A stretch of 64,000 bases of DNA from Catellatospora sp. KI3 (GTDB lineage Bacteria; Actinomycetota; Actinomycetes; Mycobacteriales; Micromonosporaceae), in NCBI RefSeq assembly GCF_029948125.1, contig NZ_JASAMB010000001.1:372001-436000 (forward strand), read 5' to 3'. Made by a program: the position numbers and the translations under genes. The first letter of the stretch is position 1, and each line of letters starts with the position of its first letter. Below the pieces are notes generated by a model. The model searched no databases. It was not told the origin of the DNA and saw nothing but the letters and a program-made list of their open reading frames with translations. Positions 44,991-52,787 of the stretch are shown here, in pieces.

Positions 44991-45116
44991 GGAACCTCCC
45001 GAGTTCGAGGACCGTCTCTGTCGCGATCGATGCTGCCGGTCGGCCGTGTGCGTAACATGTAGATATTCTTTGGTACTGCTGTATTGCCTGGTGATAAGCG
45101 ACTGCATGGGGGCTTG

Positions 45117-47906
45117 GTGAGGTTTCGCGTCCTCGGGCCGGTGGAGGTCAACGACGGTGGGGCATGGCTGTCGGCGGGACCGGCCAAGGCGCGGGCGCTG
45201 CTGGCGGCGCTGCTGGTCGACGCGGGCCGGATCGTCCCGGTCGAGCAGCTCTCCGACCGCCTGTGGGGATCGGCGCCGCCCAGGACCGCCGCGAACCAGA
45301 TCCACGGGTACGTGGCGAGGCTGCGTCGCTGCCTGGCCGACCCCGACGGCAGCGTCCTGATCACCCGGCCGCCCGGTTACCTGCTGGCGCTCGGCCCGGC
45401 GGAGCTGGACGCCGACGTTTTCGCGGCCGCCGCCGCGGCGGGCGTGGCGGCGCTGCGCTCCGGCGACCCGTCCCAGGCCTCGGTGCTGCTGGCGCAGGCC
45501 CTGTCCCAGTGGCGCGGCGACGCGTACGCCGACGTGCCGCCGATGGCGGCGGTCGCGGCCGAGGCGGGGCGGCTGGCGGAGGAGCGGCTGGCCGCGCTGG
45601 AGGCCCGGATCGAGGCGGACCTCATGTGCCACCGCCACGCCGCGCTCATCGGCGAGCTGCAGCAGCTGGTCGAGGAGCACCCGTTCCGGGAACGGCTGTG
45701 GCACCACCAGATGCTGGCCCTGTACCGGTGCGGGCGGCAGGCCGACGCGCTCGGCACGTACCAGCGGCTGTGGGCCCTGCTCGACAAGGAGCTCGGGGTG
45801 CTGCCCAGCGGGCCGCTGCGCGAGCTGCACCAGCGGATGCTCGCCACCGACCCGGCGCTGGAGGCCTCGGCGCCGCCCCAGGCCGGGCCGGGCACCGCCG
45901 CCGTGCCGGGCACCGCTCCGCCGACGATCGTCCCGCGCCAGCTTCCCGTCGGCTGCGCCGCCTTCGTCGGCCGCGACGCGCAGCTGGCGGAGCTGGACGC
46001 GCTGGCCGGTCGCGGCGGCGTGCTGGCCGTCATCAGCGGCACCGCCGGGGTGGGCAAGACGACGCTGACGATGCACTGGGCCCACCGCAACGCCGACCGC
46101 TTCCCCGACGGCCAGCTGTACGTGAACCTGCGCGGCCACGACCCGGCCCGCCCGGCGACGAGCCCGACCAGCGCCCTATACGGCTTCCTGCAGGCCCTCC
46201 TGCCCGCCGGTGCGCGCATCCCGGTCGAGGAGGAGGCGCAGGCCGCCCTCTACCGCAGCCTCACCGCCGGGCGCCGCCTGCTGGTGGTGCTCGACAACGC
46301 CCGCGACGCCGGCCAGGTGCGCCCGCTGCTGCCCGCTTCGCCCGGCTGCGTGGTGCTGGTGACCAGCCGCGACCGGATGAACAGCCTGGTGGCGCGGGAG
46401 GCGGCGTACGCGCTGAACCTCGACGTGTTCCCCGGCGACGAGGCGCACCGGCTGCTCGTCCACCGGCTCGGGCGGCAGCGGGTGGCGGCCGAGCCGAGCG
46501 CCGTGGACAGCCTGGTGCAGCGGTGCGCGGGACTGCCGCTGGCGCTGGCGGTGGTGGTGGCGCACGCGGCCGCCTACCCGTCGTTCTCGCTGGCGGAGCT
46601 GGCCGCCGAGCTGGACGGCGACGCCCGCCTGAGCGCGCTGGACGGCGGCGATCCGGCCACCGACGTACGCGCCGCGTTCGCCTGCTCGGTGCGCACGCTG
46701 AGCCCGGCCGCCGGGGAGCTGTTCCGGCGGCTGTCGCTGCATCCGGGGCCGGACATCTCGCTGGCCGCGGCGGCCGCCGTCGCCGACCTGCCGCCCGCGG
46801 CGGCCCGCGCCCTGCTCGACGAGCTGACCCGGGCGCACCTGCTGGAGCAGCACGCCCCGGGCCGCTTCCTCTACCACGACCTGCTGCGGGACTACGCCGG
46901 CGAGCTGGTGCGCGAGCACGACCCGGCGCCGCTGCGGGGTGCGGCGGCGACCCGGTTCCTGGACCACTACCTGGACACGGCGCTGCTCGGGGTGCGGCTG
47001 CTCGCGCCGCGGCGGCGACCGCCGGCCCCACGCGACCCCGGTCGGCCGGAGGAGCTGGCCGACGCGGCGCAGGCGCACGCCTGGTTCGCCGCGGAGTACG
47101 AGGTGCTGTGCGCGACCCTGCCCGCCGCCGCGGCGTCCGGGCAGGACGGCCATGTCTGGCAGCTCGCCTGGGCCCTCGCGACCTTCCAGGACCGGCAGGG
47201 GTACTGGCACGACTGGGTCACGGCGCAGCGGCTGGCGGTCGACGCCGCCGAACGCTCCGGCGCCACGGGCGACCGCGCGCACGCCCGCCGGGGCCTGGGC
47301 CGGGCGCTGGCCTGCGCGGGCCGCCACCACGAGGCGATCGAGGCGCTGGAGCACGCGATCGTGCTGCTGGACGGCGACCCGGCCGGGAAGGGCCAGGCCC
47401 ATCTGGACATCGCGCTGGCGCTGGAGTCGCTGAACCGCTGCGACGAGGCGCTCGGCTGGGCGCTGCGCAGCATCCCGCTGTTCGAGCAGACCGACGACGT
47501 CGCCCTGCTCGGCAACGCCCTCAACTGCGCGGGCTGGTACCACGCCCAGGCGGGTGACTACGAGAGCTGCGTGGCCTGCTGCCTGCGCGCGCTGACCCTG
47601 CTGCACGGCTCCGACGACCGGCGCGGGCGGGCGGCGACGCTGGACAGCCTCGGCTACGCGTACCTGCGGCTGGAGCGCTTCGAGCTGGCCGCCGAGCGGC
47701 TGCGGGAGGCGGTGGAGCTGTTCGGCCAGATCGACGACCGGCACGGCACCGCCGACGCCCTGGACCATCTGGGCGAGTGCCTGGCCGCGACCGGCGAGCA
47801 GTCCCGGGCGGCGGACGCGTGGCAGCGGGCGCTGGCCATCCTGGAGGAGCTCGGCCACGAGGACGCGGAGCTGGTCCGCGGCAGGCTGTCCGGCCTGCCG
47901 CGGTGA
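45117..47906 (+). CDS. AfsR/SARP-type regulator with NB-ARC and TPR domains
   Basis: 929 aa. Winged helix and BTAD about residues 1-245 (RFRVLGPVEVNDGG... LDKELGVLPSGPLRELHQRML), linker IVPRQLP, NB-ARC ATPase from about 283 (Walker A GTAGVGKT at 308-315; GLPLALAVV), then C-terminal TPR-like helices (GNALNCAGWYHAQAGDYESC, DSLGYAYLRLERFELAAERL). These regulators activate secondary metabolism or development on ATP-dependent signals. The GTG at 45117 follows GGGGGC; a TTG at 45084 is possible. No SARP-like 11-bp repeats were found upstream. Confidence 0.92.
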   Translation: MRFRVLGPVEVNDGGAWLSAGPAKARALLAALLVDAGRIVPVEQLSDRLWGSAPPRTAANQIHGYVARLRRCLADPDGSVLITRPPGYLLALGPAELDADVFAAAAAAGVAALRSGDPSQASVLLAQALSQWRGDAYADVPPMAAVAAEAGRLAEERLAALEARIEADLMCHRHAALIGELQQLVEEHPFRERLWHHQMLALYRCGRQADALGTYQRLWALLDKELGVLPSGPLRELHQRMLATDPALEASAPPQAGPGTAAVPGTAPPTIVPRQLPVGCAAFVGRDAQLAELDALAGRGGVLAVISGTAGVGKTTLTMHWAHRNADRFPDGQLYVNLRGHDPARPATSPTSALYGFLQALLPAGARIPVEEEAQAALYRSLTAGRRLLVVLDNARDAGQVRPLLPASPGCVVLVTSRDRMNSLVAREAAYALNLDVFPGDEAHRLLVHRLGRQRVAAEPSAVDSLVQRCAGLPLALAVVVAHAAAYPSFSLAELAAELDGDARLSALDGGDPATDVRAAFACSVRTLSPAAGELFRRLSLHPGPDISLAAAAAVADLPPAAARALLDELTRAHLLEQHAPGRFLYHDLLRDYAGELVREHDPAPLRGAAATRFLDHYLDTALLGVRLLAPRRRPPAPRDPGRPEELADAAQAHAWFAAEYEVLCATLPAAAASGQDGHVWQLAWALATFQDRQGYWHDWVTAQRLAVDAAERSGATGDRAHARRGLGRALACAGRHHEAIEALEHAIVLLDGDPAGKGQAHLDIALALESLNRCDEALGWALRSIPLFEQTDDVALLGNALNCAGWYHAQAGDYESCVACCLRALTLLHGSDDRRGRAATLDSLGYAYLRLERFELAAERLREAVELFGQIDDRHGTADALDHLGECLAATGEQSRAADAWQRALAILEELGHEDAELVRGRLSGLPR

Positions 47907-48989: not shown

Positions 48990-49031
48990 GATCCGCACCC
49001 TACCCAACCCCCGCACCCCTGTCGCGAGGCA

Positions 49032-49091
49032 GCAGTTTCCGGGAAAGTGTGCGAATAGTGCCCAAGATTCGCGCAGTTTCCCCGAAACTGC
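49032..49091. repeat. 60-bp double-palindrome repeat, copy 2
   Basis: Same length as copies at 27067 and 59781; inner stem GCGAAT/ATTCGC, arms of GCAGTTTC...GAAACTGC type. It lies between two divergent genes. Confidence 0.8.
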
Positions 49092-49206
49092 ACGCCGCCC
49101 GCGCCGGCGCGGCCCGGCGCGCGGTCGACAAAAGAAAGGGGGCGGGGTGTAATGGCGGGCGCTGTGGCGGGACCTACTGGCATCACCGCTCTACCAGGAG
49201 GCTGTC

Positions 49207-50592
49207 ATGCGGTCGGACACATCGCTGGCCCGGGGCGCGATCGCGGGCGACCGGGACGCCTTCGACCGGCTCTACCGGCAGTACCGGCCGGGGCTGCTCG
49301 GCTTCGTCGTCCGCCAGGTCGGCGACGTGCACCTGGCCGAGGACGTGGTGCAGGAGACGTTCCTGGTCGCCTGGCGCGACCTGGACAAGCTGCGCGACCC
49401 GGCCGCGTTGAAGACGTGGCTGTTCTCCATCGCGTACCGGCGGGCGATGTCGGCGGCGGGGCGGGTGTCGCCGGGGCCGCTGCCGGAGGAGCTGCTCGCC
49501 GACGACGACCGGGGCCGGCGGCCGGAGGCCGCGGCCGAGCAGCGCGAGGCGTACGAGCTGGTCTGGAACGCCGCGCACGCGCTGGAGCCGCGCCAGCGCG
49601 CGGTGCTGGAGCTGACGCTGCGCTGGGACCTGTCCAGCCGCGAGGTCGGCGAGGTGCTGGGCGTCGGCCCGACGCACGCGGCGGTGCTGGTGCACCGCTC
49701 GCGCAAGGCGCTGGGCAGCGCGGTGCGCACCATGCTGGTGGCGCGGCAGCACGGGCGCTGCGCGGGGCTGGACGCGATCGCGCCGGGTCACCGGCGGTTG
49801 AACGCCCGCGAGCGCGGCCGGGTGGACCGGCACATCAACCAGTGCGAGCACTGCCGCCGCCTGCGCACCAAGGTCAGCGCGTACGCGGTGCTGGGGCTGC
49901 TGTTCACCGCGGGCATGGCCCGGTCCGGGGGTGGCGCCGGGCGCCGGTGGGCGCTGCGGCTGGCCGGCGTGGTCACGGCCGTGTCGGTGCTGGCCACCGG
50001 GGTGTACGCGCTGATGCCGCCGGGCGGCGGCGAGCTGGACGGCGTGGGGGCGCGGCCGCGGGGCGGCGTGGCGGCGTCGCCCGACCCGTCGGCGACGGCC
50101 CCGACCGGCGCGTCTCCGTCGAGCTCGGCGGTGCCCTCGGGCTCGCCCTCGGCCGGGCCGTCGGTGTCCGCGTCGGCCTCGGCGTCGCCCAGACCGACGG
50201 CGCGGGCGCCGCAGACGCTGGAGGAGCAGATCCTCGTCCTGGTCAACGCCGAGCGCAAGAAGGTCGGCTGCGGCCCGGTGCACGCCGACGCGCGGCTGGC
50301 CAAGGCGGCGCGGCTGCACAGCGAGGACATGGCGAAGCGGGACTACTTCTCGCACGACACCCCGGAAGGGGTATCGCCGTGGGACCGGGCCAAGGCGCAG
50401 GGGTACACCACGCCGTCGGCGGAGAACATCGCGGCGGGCAACGCGACCGCCAAGGCGACGATGCAGCAGTGGATGAACTCCAAGGGGCACCGCGCCAACA
50501 TCCTGAACTGCTCGTCGAAGGCGATGGGCGTGGGCCGGGGCACCGGCGGGACATACCGCTACTACTGGACGCAGATGTTCGGCTACCGCTGA
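49207..50592 (+). CDS. ECF sigma factor fused to zinc-finger, transmembrane helix and extracellular CAP domain
   Basis: 461 aa in one frame. Sigma region 2 about residues 15-80 (DRLYRQYRPGLLGFVV, HLAEDVVQETFLVAW); sigma region 4 about 120-172 (LEPRQRAVLELTLRWDLSSR... THAAVLVHRSRKAL). Then an anti-sigma-like zinc motif HINQCEHC (H209, C213, C216), one membrane helix (about 248-269) and a Ser/Pro/Ala linker (285-335). The C-terminal CAP/SCP domain (337-461) has the motifs HSEDMAKRDYFSH, SAENIA and WMNSKGHRANIL. It appears to be a membrane-held sigma factor with an outside sensor. AGGAGG lies 5 nt before the ATG. A secreted GH76 gene follows. Confidence 0.9.
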   Translation: MRSDTSLARGAIAGDRDAFDRLYRQYRPGLLGFVVRQVGDVHLAEDVVQETFLVAWRDLDKLRDPAALKTWLFSIAYRRAMSAAGRVSPGPLPEELLADDDRGRRPEAAAEQREAYELVWNAAHALEPRQRAVLELTLRWDLSSREVGEVLGVGPTHAAVLVHRSRKALGSAVRTMLVARQHGRCAGLDAIAPGHRRLNARERGRVDRHINQCEHCRRLRTKVSAYAVLGLLFTAGMARSGGGAGRRWALRLAGVVTAVSVLATGVYALMPPGGGELDGVGARPRGGVAASPDPSATAPTGASPSSSAVPSGSPSAGPSVSASASASPRPTARAPQTLEEQILVLVNAERKKVGCGPVHADARLAKAARLHSEDMAKRDYFSHDTPEGVSPWDRAKAQGYTTPSAENIAAGNATAKATMQQWMNSKGHRANILNCSSKAMGVGRGTGGTYRYYWTQMFGYR

Positions 50593-50644
50593 TCTGGCAT
50601 ATCGAAAACCTTGTATAGCGATGCCGACCGTCTCTACCGTATCC

Positions 50645-50660
50645 GAGAGAGCGCTCTTTC
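50645..50660. promoter_or_regulatory. LacI-type palindromic operator upstream of GH76
   Basis: GAGAGAGCGCTCTTTC: a perfect 10-bp core AGAGCGCTCT extended on both sides with one mismatch. It resembles the GAGCGCTC-centred operators that LacI-family repressors use at actinomycete sugar-hydrolase genes. 28 bp before the GH76 start. Confidence 0.5.
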
Positions 50661-50687
50661 CCTGATCCGTCCCTTCAGGAGAGAGTC

Positions 50688-52118
50688 ATGCGAAGATTTC
50701 GGACCGCCCTGGTGGCGGGGCTGCTGGCGGCCGTGGCGGTGCTCGGCGCGCCGGGTGCGGCGTGGGCCGCGACGATCTGCAACAGGTACTGCGACGCCCG
50801 TGACCCCGGCCTGTCGCCGGGCGACCGGCAACCGGTGAGCGCGAGCGTCTGGGGTCGCTCCGTCGTGCTCCACTTCGACGACGCCGACGCCATGGGCTGG
50901 GCGAGCATCGCCAACGGCAACCCCGGCGACCAGGTGTGGCTGGACCGTTCCATGAACGGCGGCCGCACCACGGCGGACAGCAGGCTCGGCGACACCGCGA
51001 TCCCGACCGGCCAGCGCTCCTGGCGGACGCTGATGTACAACGTGGACGACTGGGCCAACCAGGGCGTCGGCGCCCTGCGGGCCTGCGGCAAGGCGGGCGA
51101 CCGCCCCGAGGTGGCGTGCACGCCCTGGGCGCGTACCACCTGGAACGCGGGCAACCGGGCCACCGCCGCCGCGACGGCGCTGATGATGTCCTACAACCGG
51201 GGCACCGGCCTGTTCGACACCACGGGCTGGTGGAACAGCGCCAACGCGCTCACCGCCGTCATCGACGGCATCCGGGTGACCGGCATGCCCAGCTACCGGT
51301 ACGCCATCGCGAACACCTACGACAAGAACCTCGGGAAGAACCGGGGCAACTTCACCAACGACTACCTCGACGACACCGGGTGGTGGGGGCTGGCCTGGGT
51401 CGCCGCGTACGACGCGACCGGCGACAGCCGCTACCTCAACACCGCCCGCTTCGACGCCGACTTCATGAACTCCTACTGGGACGGCACCTGCGGGGGCGGC
51501 ATCTGGTGGAGCACCGCGCGCACTTACAAGGCCGCCATCGCCAACAGCCTGTTCCTGCAGCTCAACGCCGCGCTGCACAACCGCGTCCCGGGCGACACGG
51601 TGTACCTCCAGCGGGCCCGCAGCACCTGGACCTGGATCCAGAACACCGGCCTGGTCAACTCGTCCGGGCTGGTCAACGACGGGATCAGCCTGTCGACCTG
51701 CCGCAACAACGGGTCGACGGCGTGGTCGTACAACCAGGGGGTCCTGATCGCGGGGCTGACCGAGCTGAACCGGGCCACCGGGGACGCCGCCCTGCTCACC
51801 GCCGCCCGCCGCACCGCCGACGCGGCGACCACGTCCTCGTCACTCAACGTCAACGGCATCCTGCGCGAACCGTGCGAACCCAACTGCGGCGCCGACGGCC
51901 CGACCTTCAAGGGCGTCTTCGCGCGGGGCCTGGTCAAGCTGGACCTCGCCCTGCCGGGCCGCCCCTACCTGCCCTACCTGCGCCGCAACGCCGACACCGC
52001 GTACGCCGCCGACCGCAACCCGCTCGACGCGTACGGCCTGCGCTGGGCCGGCCCGCTCGACAGCACCGACGCCGCCCGCCAGCAGTCCGCCACCGACCTC
52101 CTCAACGCCGCCTGGTGA
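50688..52118 (+). CDS. Secreted glycoside hydrolase family 76 protein
   Basis: 476 aa. Signal peptide about residues 1-27 (ending AAWA). An N-terminal region of about 120 residues with an unassigned fold is followed by a GH76 alpha/alpha-barrel. The catalytic Asp pair is D228-D229 in [14 protein letters not shown]; other family motifs are GGIWWST and [14 protein letters not shown]76 enzymes cleave alpha-1,6-mannan. AGGAGAGAG precedes the ATG. It lies 95 bp after the sigma-CAP gene and ends at a palindromic terminator repeat. Confidence 0.92.
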
Positions 52119-52123
52119 CGGCG

Positions 52124-52173
52124 TAAGGAAGGGGCCCTTCCCATCGCTTTCCGTAGTGGAAGGGCCCCTTCCC
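52124..52173. repeat. 50-bp GGAAGGGGCCC palindromic repeat / terminator, copy 1
   Basis: TAAGGAAGGGGCCCTTCC, a conserved centre ATCGCTTTCCGTAGT, then GGAAGGGCCCCTTCCC, so the two arms form a long hairpin. The same 50-bp element lies in inverse orientation at 55677-55726. It falls between the convergent GH76 and methyltransferase stops and probably terminates both. Confidence 0.8.
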
Positions 52174-52184
52174 AACCGGTCGGG

Positions 52185-52787
52185 TCAGGCACGGCGGCAG
52201 TGCAGGGACAGCCAGGAGCGGTGGGTCTGGCCGCGCCGGGTCCAGAGCACCTCGAAGTCGACCGACTCCAGCCAGCCGAGCAGCTCCCGCTCGCTGTAGT
52301 AGCTGAACCAGCGCGGCGCGCGGCTGTCGTCGTAGTGCGACGGCTCGAAGCCCTCGCCCTCGCCCTCGGCCACCGTCAGCCACATCTGCCCATCCGAGTT
52401 CAGCACCCGGGCGAACTCCGCGATCGCGCGCGGGGCCGCCTCGCGCGGCAGGTGCAGCAGCGACGCGATGGCCCAGATCCCGTCCACCGCGCCGTCGGCG
52501 AACGGCAGCTCCAGCATGTCGGCCTGGACCAGCCCCGGCACGCCGCCGGAGGCGCGCAGCTGCCCTTCGGACAGGTCCAGCCCGACCACGCGCAGGCCCA
52601 GCTCGCGCAGCGCGCGGACGTGGTGCGCGGGGCCGCAGCCGATGTCGGCGACCAGCGCCCCGGGGCGCAGCGCGGCGGCGAAGCGCTCCCGGTCGGGCGC
52701 CATGCCGTCGACGCCGCCCAGCTGCTGGGCGTACGCGGAGGCGATGTGGTCGTAGGTGGCGCGGGTGACGGCCTGGGGGTCGGGCAT
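52185..52787 (-). CDS. Class I SAM-dependent methyltransferase
   Basis: 200 aa from the ATG at 52787. SAM-binding loop VADIGCGPAHHVRAL, then VVGLDLSEGQL, DMLELPFADGAVDGIWAIASLLHL and RVLNSDGQMWLTV, the UbiE/methyltransf_11 pattern. The substrate is unknown. It starts 21 bp after the epimerase stop on the same strand. Confidence 0.9.
   Translation of the reverse strand: MPDPQAVTRATYDHIASAYAQQLGGVDGMAPDRERFAAALRPGALVADIGCGPAHHVRALRELGLRVVGLDLSEGQLRASGGVPGLVQADMLELPFADGAVDGIWAIASLLHLPREAAPRAIAEFARVLNSDGQMWLTVAEGEGEGFEPSHYDDSRAPRWFSYYSERELLGWLESVDFEVLWTRRGQTHRSWLSLHCRRA

What the first reader, a model, noticed from the sequence alone, without database searches (positions are those of the whole stretch)
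49207..50592. One-polypeptide signalling device: ECF sigma factor, zinc motif, membrane helix and outside CAP domain
A single 461-residue frame joins sigma regions 2 and 4 to an anti-sigma-like HxxxCxxC motif, a transmembrane helix, a Ser/Pro linker and a complete CAP/SCP domain. Known ECF groups with C-terminal extensions exist, but a CAP domain as the outside part would make a sigma factor that senses wall or secreted molecules directly, perhaps released by proteolysis. The adjacent secreted GH76 gene is a likely target.
Basis: partly seen in the sequence, partly recalled or inferred. Interest (0 to 1): 0.75.

Follow-up and report, generated by a model that had tools for sequence, protein, structure and literature searches.

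The report
Membrane-tethered sigma factor with CAP sensor
A soil actinobacterium encodes, as a single protein, a gene-switching sigma factor, the clamp that would hold it silent, a membrane anchor and an outward-facing CAP domain; this layout is conserved, appears to have evolved at least twice, and in a parallel lineage seems tied to genes for secreted CAP proteins.

Summary
Window 49207-50592 is one intact 461-aa frame: sigma regions 2 and 4, an Hx3Cx2C anti-sigma-type motif, a membrane helix, a Ser/Pro linker and a CAP domain. It is no frameshift artefact: 11 of 11 genomes of the genus (Catellatospora) and one of another genus encode the whole fusion without internal stops. The layout (sigma + fused anti-sigma + membrane helix + outside domain) is known from groups ECF48/52/53; no listing or passage seen here reports CAP as the outside domain. 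A second, distant sigma lineage ('type II') carries CAP in Streptomycetaceae and two genomes of the window's family; trees of both domains reject one origin. Type II loci share GTTATC-N16/17-GTCTCC with neighbouring secreted CAP genes, and their beta-helix relatives with pectinesterase genes, so the outside domain may match the target. The window's lineage has its own promoter-like element, TGTAAT-N17-GACYTA, 30-32 bp before the ATG, exactly once per genome in 11 of 11, pointing to self-activation. The GH76 neighbour follows the fusion in only 3 of 11 and is probably not a core target. Sensing, cis inhibition and proteolytic release remain inferred.

The parts
49148..49176 (+). promoter-like element TGTAAT-N17-GACYTA, probable self-recognised ECF promoter
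   Evidence: exact match at 49148-49176; exactly 1 match per genome in 11 of 11 genus genomes, reversed-pattern control 0; core GTAATG...ACYTA kept in 12 of 12 upstream regions including G026
49196..49201 (+). AGGAGG, likely ribosome binding site
   Evidence: sequence shows directly; GGAGG kept in 12 of 12
49207..50592 (+). sigma-ZAS-TM-CAP fusion gene, 461 aa
49270..49452 (+). sigma region 2 (residues 22-82)
   Evidence: Pfam PF04542 E 1.1e-13
49558..49713 (+). sigma region 4 (residues 118-169)
   Evidence: Pfam PF08281 E 1.9e-5, slightly under its cut-off; TIGR02937 above cut-off
49750..49854 (+). zinc anti-sigma-like segment, H182/C185 to H209-x3-C213-x2-C216
   Evidence: C185, H209, C213, C216 invariant in 12 of 12, H182 nearly so; Hx3Cx2C is the signature used for zinc-binding class I anti-sigma domains (PMC7406223, passages)
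49960..50016 (+). transmembrane helix (residues 252-270)
   Evidence: hydropathy maximum 1.96; low-confidence model gives a helix 244-268
50020..50214 (+). Ser/Pro/Ala-rich linker (residues 272-336)
   Evidence: translation; pLDDT under 50 over residues 234-331
50239..50580 (+). CAP/SCP domain (residues 345-458), outside the membrane by inference; C355 and C435 invariant
   Evidence: Pfam PF00188 E 5.9e-26; PDB relatives 4ifa E 8.3e-15 and 4d53 E 0.0015; invariant residues

Best explanation
A one-protein transmembrane signalling device. Regions 2 and 4 form an ECF sigma factor. The fused Hx3Cx2C helical segment acts in cis as an anti-sigma clamp and, with the membrane helix, keeps the sigma part at the membrane and idle. 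The CAP domain lies outside and responds to a wall, lipid or secreted ligand. The signal lets proteases cut the extension and free the sigma part (inferred from ECF52 and IutY). The freed sigma part activates its own gene from the TGTAAT-N17-GACYTA element. In the parallel type II lineage the equivalent factors also seem to drive genes for exported proteins that match the outside domain, CAP proteins in the case of sigma-CAP. Shown by sequence: the fusion, its conservation, the promoter-like elements and their sharing with CAP genes. Supported by trees: two origins. Inferred: inhibition in cis, outward topology, ligand, proteolysis, and actual promoter recognition.
For: Intact fusion in 11 of 11 genus genomes and G026, with sigma, zinc-motif and CAP residues invariant. 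The element occurs once per genome, only before this gene, control 0; allowing 1 mismatch adds none in the window's genome, and 10 sites over the 11 genomes against 22 for the reversed control. Its core is kept in another genus. Neighbours differ while fusion and element stay. Type II: 12 of 13 sigma-CAP genes and 4 of 4 nearby stand-alone CAP genes have GTTATC-N16/17-GTCTCC upstream with at most 2 mismatches, against 0 of 3000 reversed 300-bp pieces. In 9 genomes or plasmids 16 exact sites, control 0: 8 precede sigma-CAP(-like) genes, 4 CAP genes, 4 others; 9 were known before, and of the 7 new ones 3 are CAP-related, one a CAP lipoprotein gene about 106 kb from the sigma-CAP gene. ECF52 SCO4117 precedent (passages).
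Against: zf-HC2 does not match the window protein and is weak in its relatives, so the clamp rests on motif and position. Structure model poor (mean pLDDT 59, pTM 0.39). No second site of the type I element in its genome, so a wider regulon is unsupported for the window's own lineage. The type II motif is not special to CAP: in two Catellatospora loci it stands between a beta-helix sigma gene and a pectinesterase-like gene, and 4 of 16 sites are before other genes. One of 13 type II sigma-CAP genes lacks it (L151). No expression, localisation or cleavage data.
Confidence: 0.7

Rival explanations
1. The CAP part is the working product, not a sensor: a membrane-anchored CAP protein whose fused sigma part merely sets its own dose (feedback loop), shed or kept according to proteolysis.
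For: The only exact promoter-like site in each of 11 genomes is before the gene itself. CAP residues are as conserved as the sigma part. A stand-alone membrane-anchored CAP (L111, G022) was nearest to the CAP part in the first tree (92/88), though its place is unresolved in the larger one.
Against: Anti-sigma-type motif and published ECF52 precedent favour sensing; type II relatives carry AbfB or beta-helix outside domains (6 of 6 scanned), as exchangeable sensors would.
Confidence: 0.3
2. It controls secreted hydrolases including GH76 next door, sensing wall mannan or other glycans.
For: GH76 starts 95 bp after the stop on the same strand and is next in 3 of 11 genomes; no terminator-like site found in 49000-52300, so read-through is possible. 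In type II, neighbours of such sigma genes do look like targets.
Against: GH76 not seen there in 8 of 11 genus genomes nor beside the G026 homologue; GH76 has its own leader, its last 44 bases identical in 3 of 3; no second copy of the element in the genome.
Confidence: 0.1
3. The element before the gene is read by another sigma factor, and the fused sigma acts on unrelated, undetected promoters.
For: Promoter recognition was not measured; the exact element has one site only. The type II motif is not confined to CAP-bearing sigma factors.
Against: Element and fusion gene stay together in two genera while neighbours change; autoregulation is called common among ECF factors in PMC5826349 (passage).
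Confidence: 0.25
4. Sequencing or assembly artefact joining two genes.
For: None found.
Against: Full-length open homologues in 11 of 11 genus genomes and in a second genus.
Confidence: 0.005

Closest known systems
ECF52 (SCO4117 of Streptomyces coelicolor)
   Same: ECF sigma + zinc finger + transmembrane region + Pro-rich linker + outside domain in one protein; proposed proteolytic release; suggested autoregulation (PMC5826349, PMC8999054; passages)
   Different: Outside domain is a carbohydrate-binding module, not CAP; the published SCO4117 motif CSGYN-17bp-SRHA differs from TGTAAT-N17-GACYTA; the SCO4117 sequence was not compared here
ECF53 and ECF48 groups
   Same: Anti-sigma and transmembrane part fused C-terminally; some ECF52/53 proteins predicted to carry glycosyl hydrolase or carbohydrate-binding domains (PMC8999054, PMC10766802; passages)
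   Different: No CAP member described in the passages seen; group profiles were not on hand, so assignment of type I or type II is open
IutY of Pseudomonas putida (ECF243)
   Same: Sigma and membrane anti-sigma in one polypeptide, freed by regulated proteolysis (PMC8999054, passage)
   Different: Iron-siderophore cell-surface signalling in a Gram-negative; CAP not mentioned in the passage
SigI/RsgI systems of Clostridium thermocellum
   Same: Membrane anti-sigma factors sense different substrates; RseP cleaves the membrane helix (PMC12203970, start of abstract in search listings)
   Different: Sigma and anti-sigma are separate proteins; matching of outside domain to target genes is recalled, not read here
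Bacterial stand-alone CAP/SCP proteins (YkwD family, PDB 4ifa, 4d53)
   Same: CAP domain
   Different: Named as extracellular or surface proteins and the YkwD model (window protein below that model's cut-off); no sigma factor in those names

Membership tests
ECF sigma factors | sigma regions 2 and 4 as the only sigma regions | tested here: met
   Sigma70_r2 and r4_2 only (r4_2 slightly under its cut-off), TIGR02937 68.9 bits against cut-off 42.9; PDB profile hits to sigma-H/AlgU, SigW and sigma-E within residues 4-178
ECF48/52/53-type sigma with fused membrane anti-sigma | zinc-binding anti-sigma segment C-terminal to region 4 | tested here: inconclusive
   Hx3Cx2C plus C185 invariant in 12 of 12, but zf-HC2 profile not matched by the window protein
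ECF48/52/53-type sigma with fused membrane anti-sigma | one or two transmembrane helices and a long outside region | tested here: met
   hydropathy peak at 252-270, linker and CAP domain after it; topology itself not measured
ECF52 | carbohydrate-binding domain at the C-terminus | tested here: not met
   CAP domain instead
ECF52 / ECF53 / ECF48 group assignment | best match to the group's sigma-core profile | not testable with these tools
   group profiles not on hand; two classification papers looked up are not held
CAP/SCP superfamily | CAP profile over its full length | tested here: met
   PF00188 profile positions 3-117 of 117, E 5.9e-26, above cut-off
CAP/SCP superfamily | conserved His/Glu cavity residues | tested here: inconclusive
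   H371, H383, E406, H428 invariant in 12 of 12; that these are the CAP cavity residues is recalled, not tested
Type II sigma-CAP lineage (named here) | same sigma clade, CAP clade and promoter | tested here: not met
   AU test rejects one sigma clade (p 0.00065) and one CAP clade (p 0.014); different promoter element, and no type II motif in the window

The most novel reading that the evidence does not exclude
Type I is a closed one-gene circuit: a sigma factor whose only strong promoter in the genome is its own, so that the CAP domain is at once sensor and product and each signalling event replaces the receptor it consumes. In parallel, another sigma lineage exchanges its outside domain (CAP, beta helix, AbfB) and controls exported proteins that match it. 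Together they would be a convergent, so far unrecognised class of CAP-sensing sigma factors.
Probability: 0.3. Interest if true: 0.75.

Novelty: new variant of a known kind. Interest (0 to 1): 0.6.

Why it matters
CAP domains occur across life but their bacterial role is largely unknown (recalled). A sigma factor with a CAP domain outside, and a promoter motif linking such factors to secreted CAP genes, gives a direct way to ask what bacterial CAP proteins sense or bind: use the native promoter as a reporter and screen signals. It also extends the known ECF52/53 layout beyond sugar-related outside domains and suggests a rule (outside domain matches exported target) for predicting the signals of many unassigned sigma factors.

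Tried and rejected
Frameshift or assembly artefact: rejected. GH76 as conserved partner: rejected. The palindrome in the GH76 leader is weak evidence by itself: 33 of 100 shuffles of the window hold such a match. Sigma-70-type promoter or terminator in 49000-52300: none by consensus scan. Type I element near the genome's stand-alone CAP gene: none with up to 3 mismatches in L128. Near matches in the window: 4 more, all with 3 mismatches, fewer than chance. Fold search: sigma part matches SigW, AlgU and sigma-E structures, CAP part weakly (4d53 E 0.15); low-confidence model, not relied on. One origin of sigma-CAP: rejected by AU tests, with the caveat that the two groups had been seen in earlier trees. 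Type II CAP parts alone: one clade not rejected (p 0.096), and L159/L160 fall elsewhere, so the CAP part may have been exchanged within type II.

Rows dropped or corrected: five long-branch plain ECF rows were left out of the second sigma tree (present). The first upstream alignment took a wrong site for G007 and had no G026 row; redone. Plasmid hits: of 103 records matching P0003, 40 were listed and 11 of these matched both the sigma and CAP ends (H11-H21); 10 were read, H21 being a second record of the strain of H20. Sigma region 2 and CAP are confirmed by Pfam in 10 of 10; L163 has the weakest CAP match (E 1.3e-12). In one search the start codons of L159 and L160 were not settled, and a further CAP frame in L161 (1 mismatch) was not counted.

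Full report
What is there. The frame at 49207-50592 (+) is open and codes for 461 residues. Its domains are sigma region 2, sigma region 4 (profile slightly under its cut-off) and a full CAP domain; the ECF superfamily model is passed above its cut-off. Between them lie H182/C185...H209-x3-C213-x2-C216, one strongly hydrophobic stretch at 252-270 and a Ser/Pro linker. The only other cysteines, C355 and C435, are in the CAP domain and invariant in 12 of 12, which would suit a disulphide outside the cell (inference).

Is it real? The window lies in a genome of 8.2 Mb. Named full-length relatives are in Catellatospora sichuanensis and C. vulcania; contig lengths of G006 and G010 equal those records, so the genus is Catellatospora (inference). 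All 11 genomes of the genus searched, own included, have the full-length fusion with no internal stop, at 67-90% identity to the window protein. A further one is in G026, another genus of the family, at 59%. In the family sample of 31 genomes only G000, G001 and G026 have it full-length, and none of 29 genomes of other families in the class has. The fusion is conserved, but this lineage ('type I') seems confined to one family as sampled.

Setting. In 3 of 11 genus genomes (own, G008, G009) the next gene is GH76. In the other 8 a TauE-like permease gene lies downstream on the same strand: the next listed frame in 6, with one short frame between in 2 (G002, G005) (Pfam TauE confirmed in the 2 scanned). 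Beside the G026 homologue are a secreted-protein gene upstream and an opposing gene that overlaps its end by a few bases, by my reading a ligase; neither GH76 nor TauE was seen. The last 44 bases of the GH76 leader are identical in 3 of 3 and hold GAGAGCGCTCTT, which resembles LacI-type operators (recalled), though such a match is not rare by chance. GH76 is therefore a poor candidate for a core target.

Promoter element. The upstream regions of 12 homologues are alike mainly in GTAATG...ACYTA and the ribosome binding site. TGTAAT-N17-GACYTA occurs exactly once in each of 11 genomes, 30-32 bp before this gene, with 0 control matches. With one mismatch the own genome still has only this one; over the 11 genomes 10 further sites appear, against 22 for the reversed control. 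By the usual logic for ECF factors this is probably the factor's own promoter (inference), and the sequence gives no sign of further strong targets.

A second lineage. The family search also found two proteins with the same order of parts but a distant sigma factor (L118 of G017, L123 of G035). The same lineage is in 10 plasmid records read here (Streptomyces, Kitasatospora, Embleya, Streptantibioticus), Pfam confirming sigma region 2 and CAP in 10 of 10, and in chromosome G057, the only full-length one among 29 other families. I call it type II. In Catellatospora itself, type II relatives carry AbfB or beta-helix outside domains instead (6 of 6 scanned): outside domains are swapped on this chassis. 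A tree of sigma domains separates types I and II (100/100), and a common clade is rejected (AU p 0.00065). A tree of CAP domains also rejects a common clade (p 0.014). The groups had been noticed in earlier trees, which weakens the p-values somewhat. CAP was thus probably joined to such a chassis at least twice.

Targets in type II. GTTATC-N16/17-GTCTCC lies upstream of 12 of 13 type II sigma-CAP genes with at most 2 mismatches (8 perfect) and of 4 of 4 stand-alone CAP genes beside them (2 perfect), against 0 of 3000 reversed 300-bp pieces. The motif was read from some of these sequences. The wider test is the search of 3 genomes and 6 plasmids: 16 exact GTTATC-N16/17-GTCTC sites, 0 control. 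Eight precede sigma-CAP genes (one, L181, with a disturbed middle), four precede CAP genes, and four others precede an alginate-lyase-like gene, a PATR-repeat protein gene, an IspD-like gene (my reading) and an unclear frame. Nine of the 16 were known before; of the 7 new ones, 3 are CAP-related: L181 and two CAP lipoprotein genes confirmed by Pfam, one 1.7 kb from L181 and one about 106 kb from the Kitasatospora sigma-CAP gene. The stand-alone CAP domains group with 8 of 10 type II CAP domains (98/96).

A result that limits this. The motif is not special to CAP. The 6 type II relatives with other outside domains lack it before their own genes (4 or 5 mismatches), but in two Catellatospora loci (L137, L147) a site stands just after a beta-helix sigma gene and before a secreted gene with ricin-lectin and pectinesterase domains (domains scanned in L137). 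In the window's own genome another beta-helix sigma gene lies beside a pectinesterase gene (L126), without the exact motif in that locus. So the promoter belongs to the type II group at large, and what seems to follow the outside domain is the kind of neighbouring exported target: CAP with CAP, beta helix (pectate-lyase-like by Pfam name) with pectinesterase. Which factor reads which site where several are present is open.

How it probably works. The fused helical segment clamps the sigma part in cis; the CAP domain outside receives the signal; cleavage frees the sigma part, which switches on its own gene and, in type II, genes for matching exported proteins. A fused extension released by proteolysis is the published model for ECF52 SCO4117 (PMC5826349, passages; PMC8999054, passages) and was characterised by experiment for IutY (PMC8999054, passage). 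None of these steps was tested for the present protein. The structure model was poor.

Known or new. The chassis is known. CAP as the outside part appeared in none of the listings of eight full-text searches bearing on it; I read passages of four papers only, and two classification papers looked up are not held, so prior mention cannot be excluded. The five annotated plasmid records name the proteins only 'sigma-70 family RNA polymerase sigma factor'. I rate it a new variant of a known kind.

Noticed in passing
L118, L123, L149-L151, L156-L163: A type II sigma-ZAS-TM-CAP lineage on Streptomycetaceae plasmids, in chromosome G057 and in two genomes of the window's family, with GTTATC-N16/17-GTCTCC shared with secreted CAP genes.
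   Followed up: yes
L126, L127, L129, L130, L136, L137 and others: Type II relatives in Catellatospora carry AbfB or right-handed beta-helix outside domains: a chassis with exchangeable outside domains.
   Followed up: partly
L137 3609-3636 (+), L147 241-268 (-), L126 3-1535: The type II promoter motif stands between a beta-helix sigma gene and a ricin-lectin/pectinesterase-like gene; in the window's genome another beta-helix sigma gene lies beside a pectinesterase gene. Outside domain and neighbouring target seem to match.
   Followed up: partly
window 50593-50687: Leader of the GH76 gene: last 44 bases identical in 3 of 3 genomes, with a GAGAGCGCTCTT palindrome like a LacI-type operator (recalled; such a match is in 33 of 100 shuffles).
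   Followed up: partly
L181 (Embleya plasmid NZ_CP108777.1 near 987916): A second sigma-CAP-like gene with an apparently disturbed zinc-motif region but the type II promoter, 1.7 kb before a CAP lipoprotein gene with the same motif.
   Followed up: no
L125 1061-2470 (G026:C1:175060-176469): Another sigma factor with a zf-HC2 match (E 0.00039), hydrophobic stretch, Ser/Pro linker and an unnamed C-terminal part.
   Followed up: no
window 45084-47906: Large BTAD/NB-ARC/TPR regulator (940 aa) upstream of the fusion in the window.
   Followed up: no
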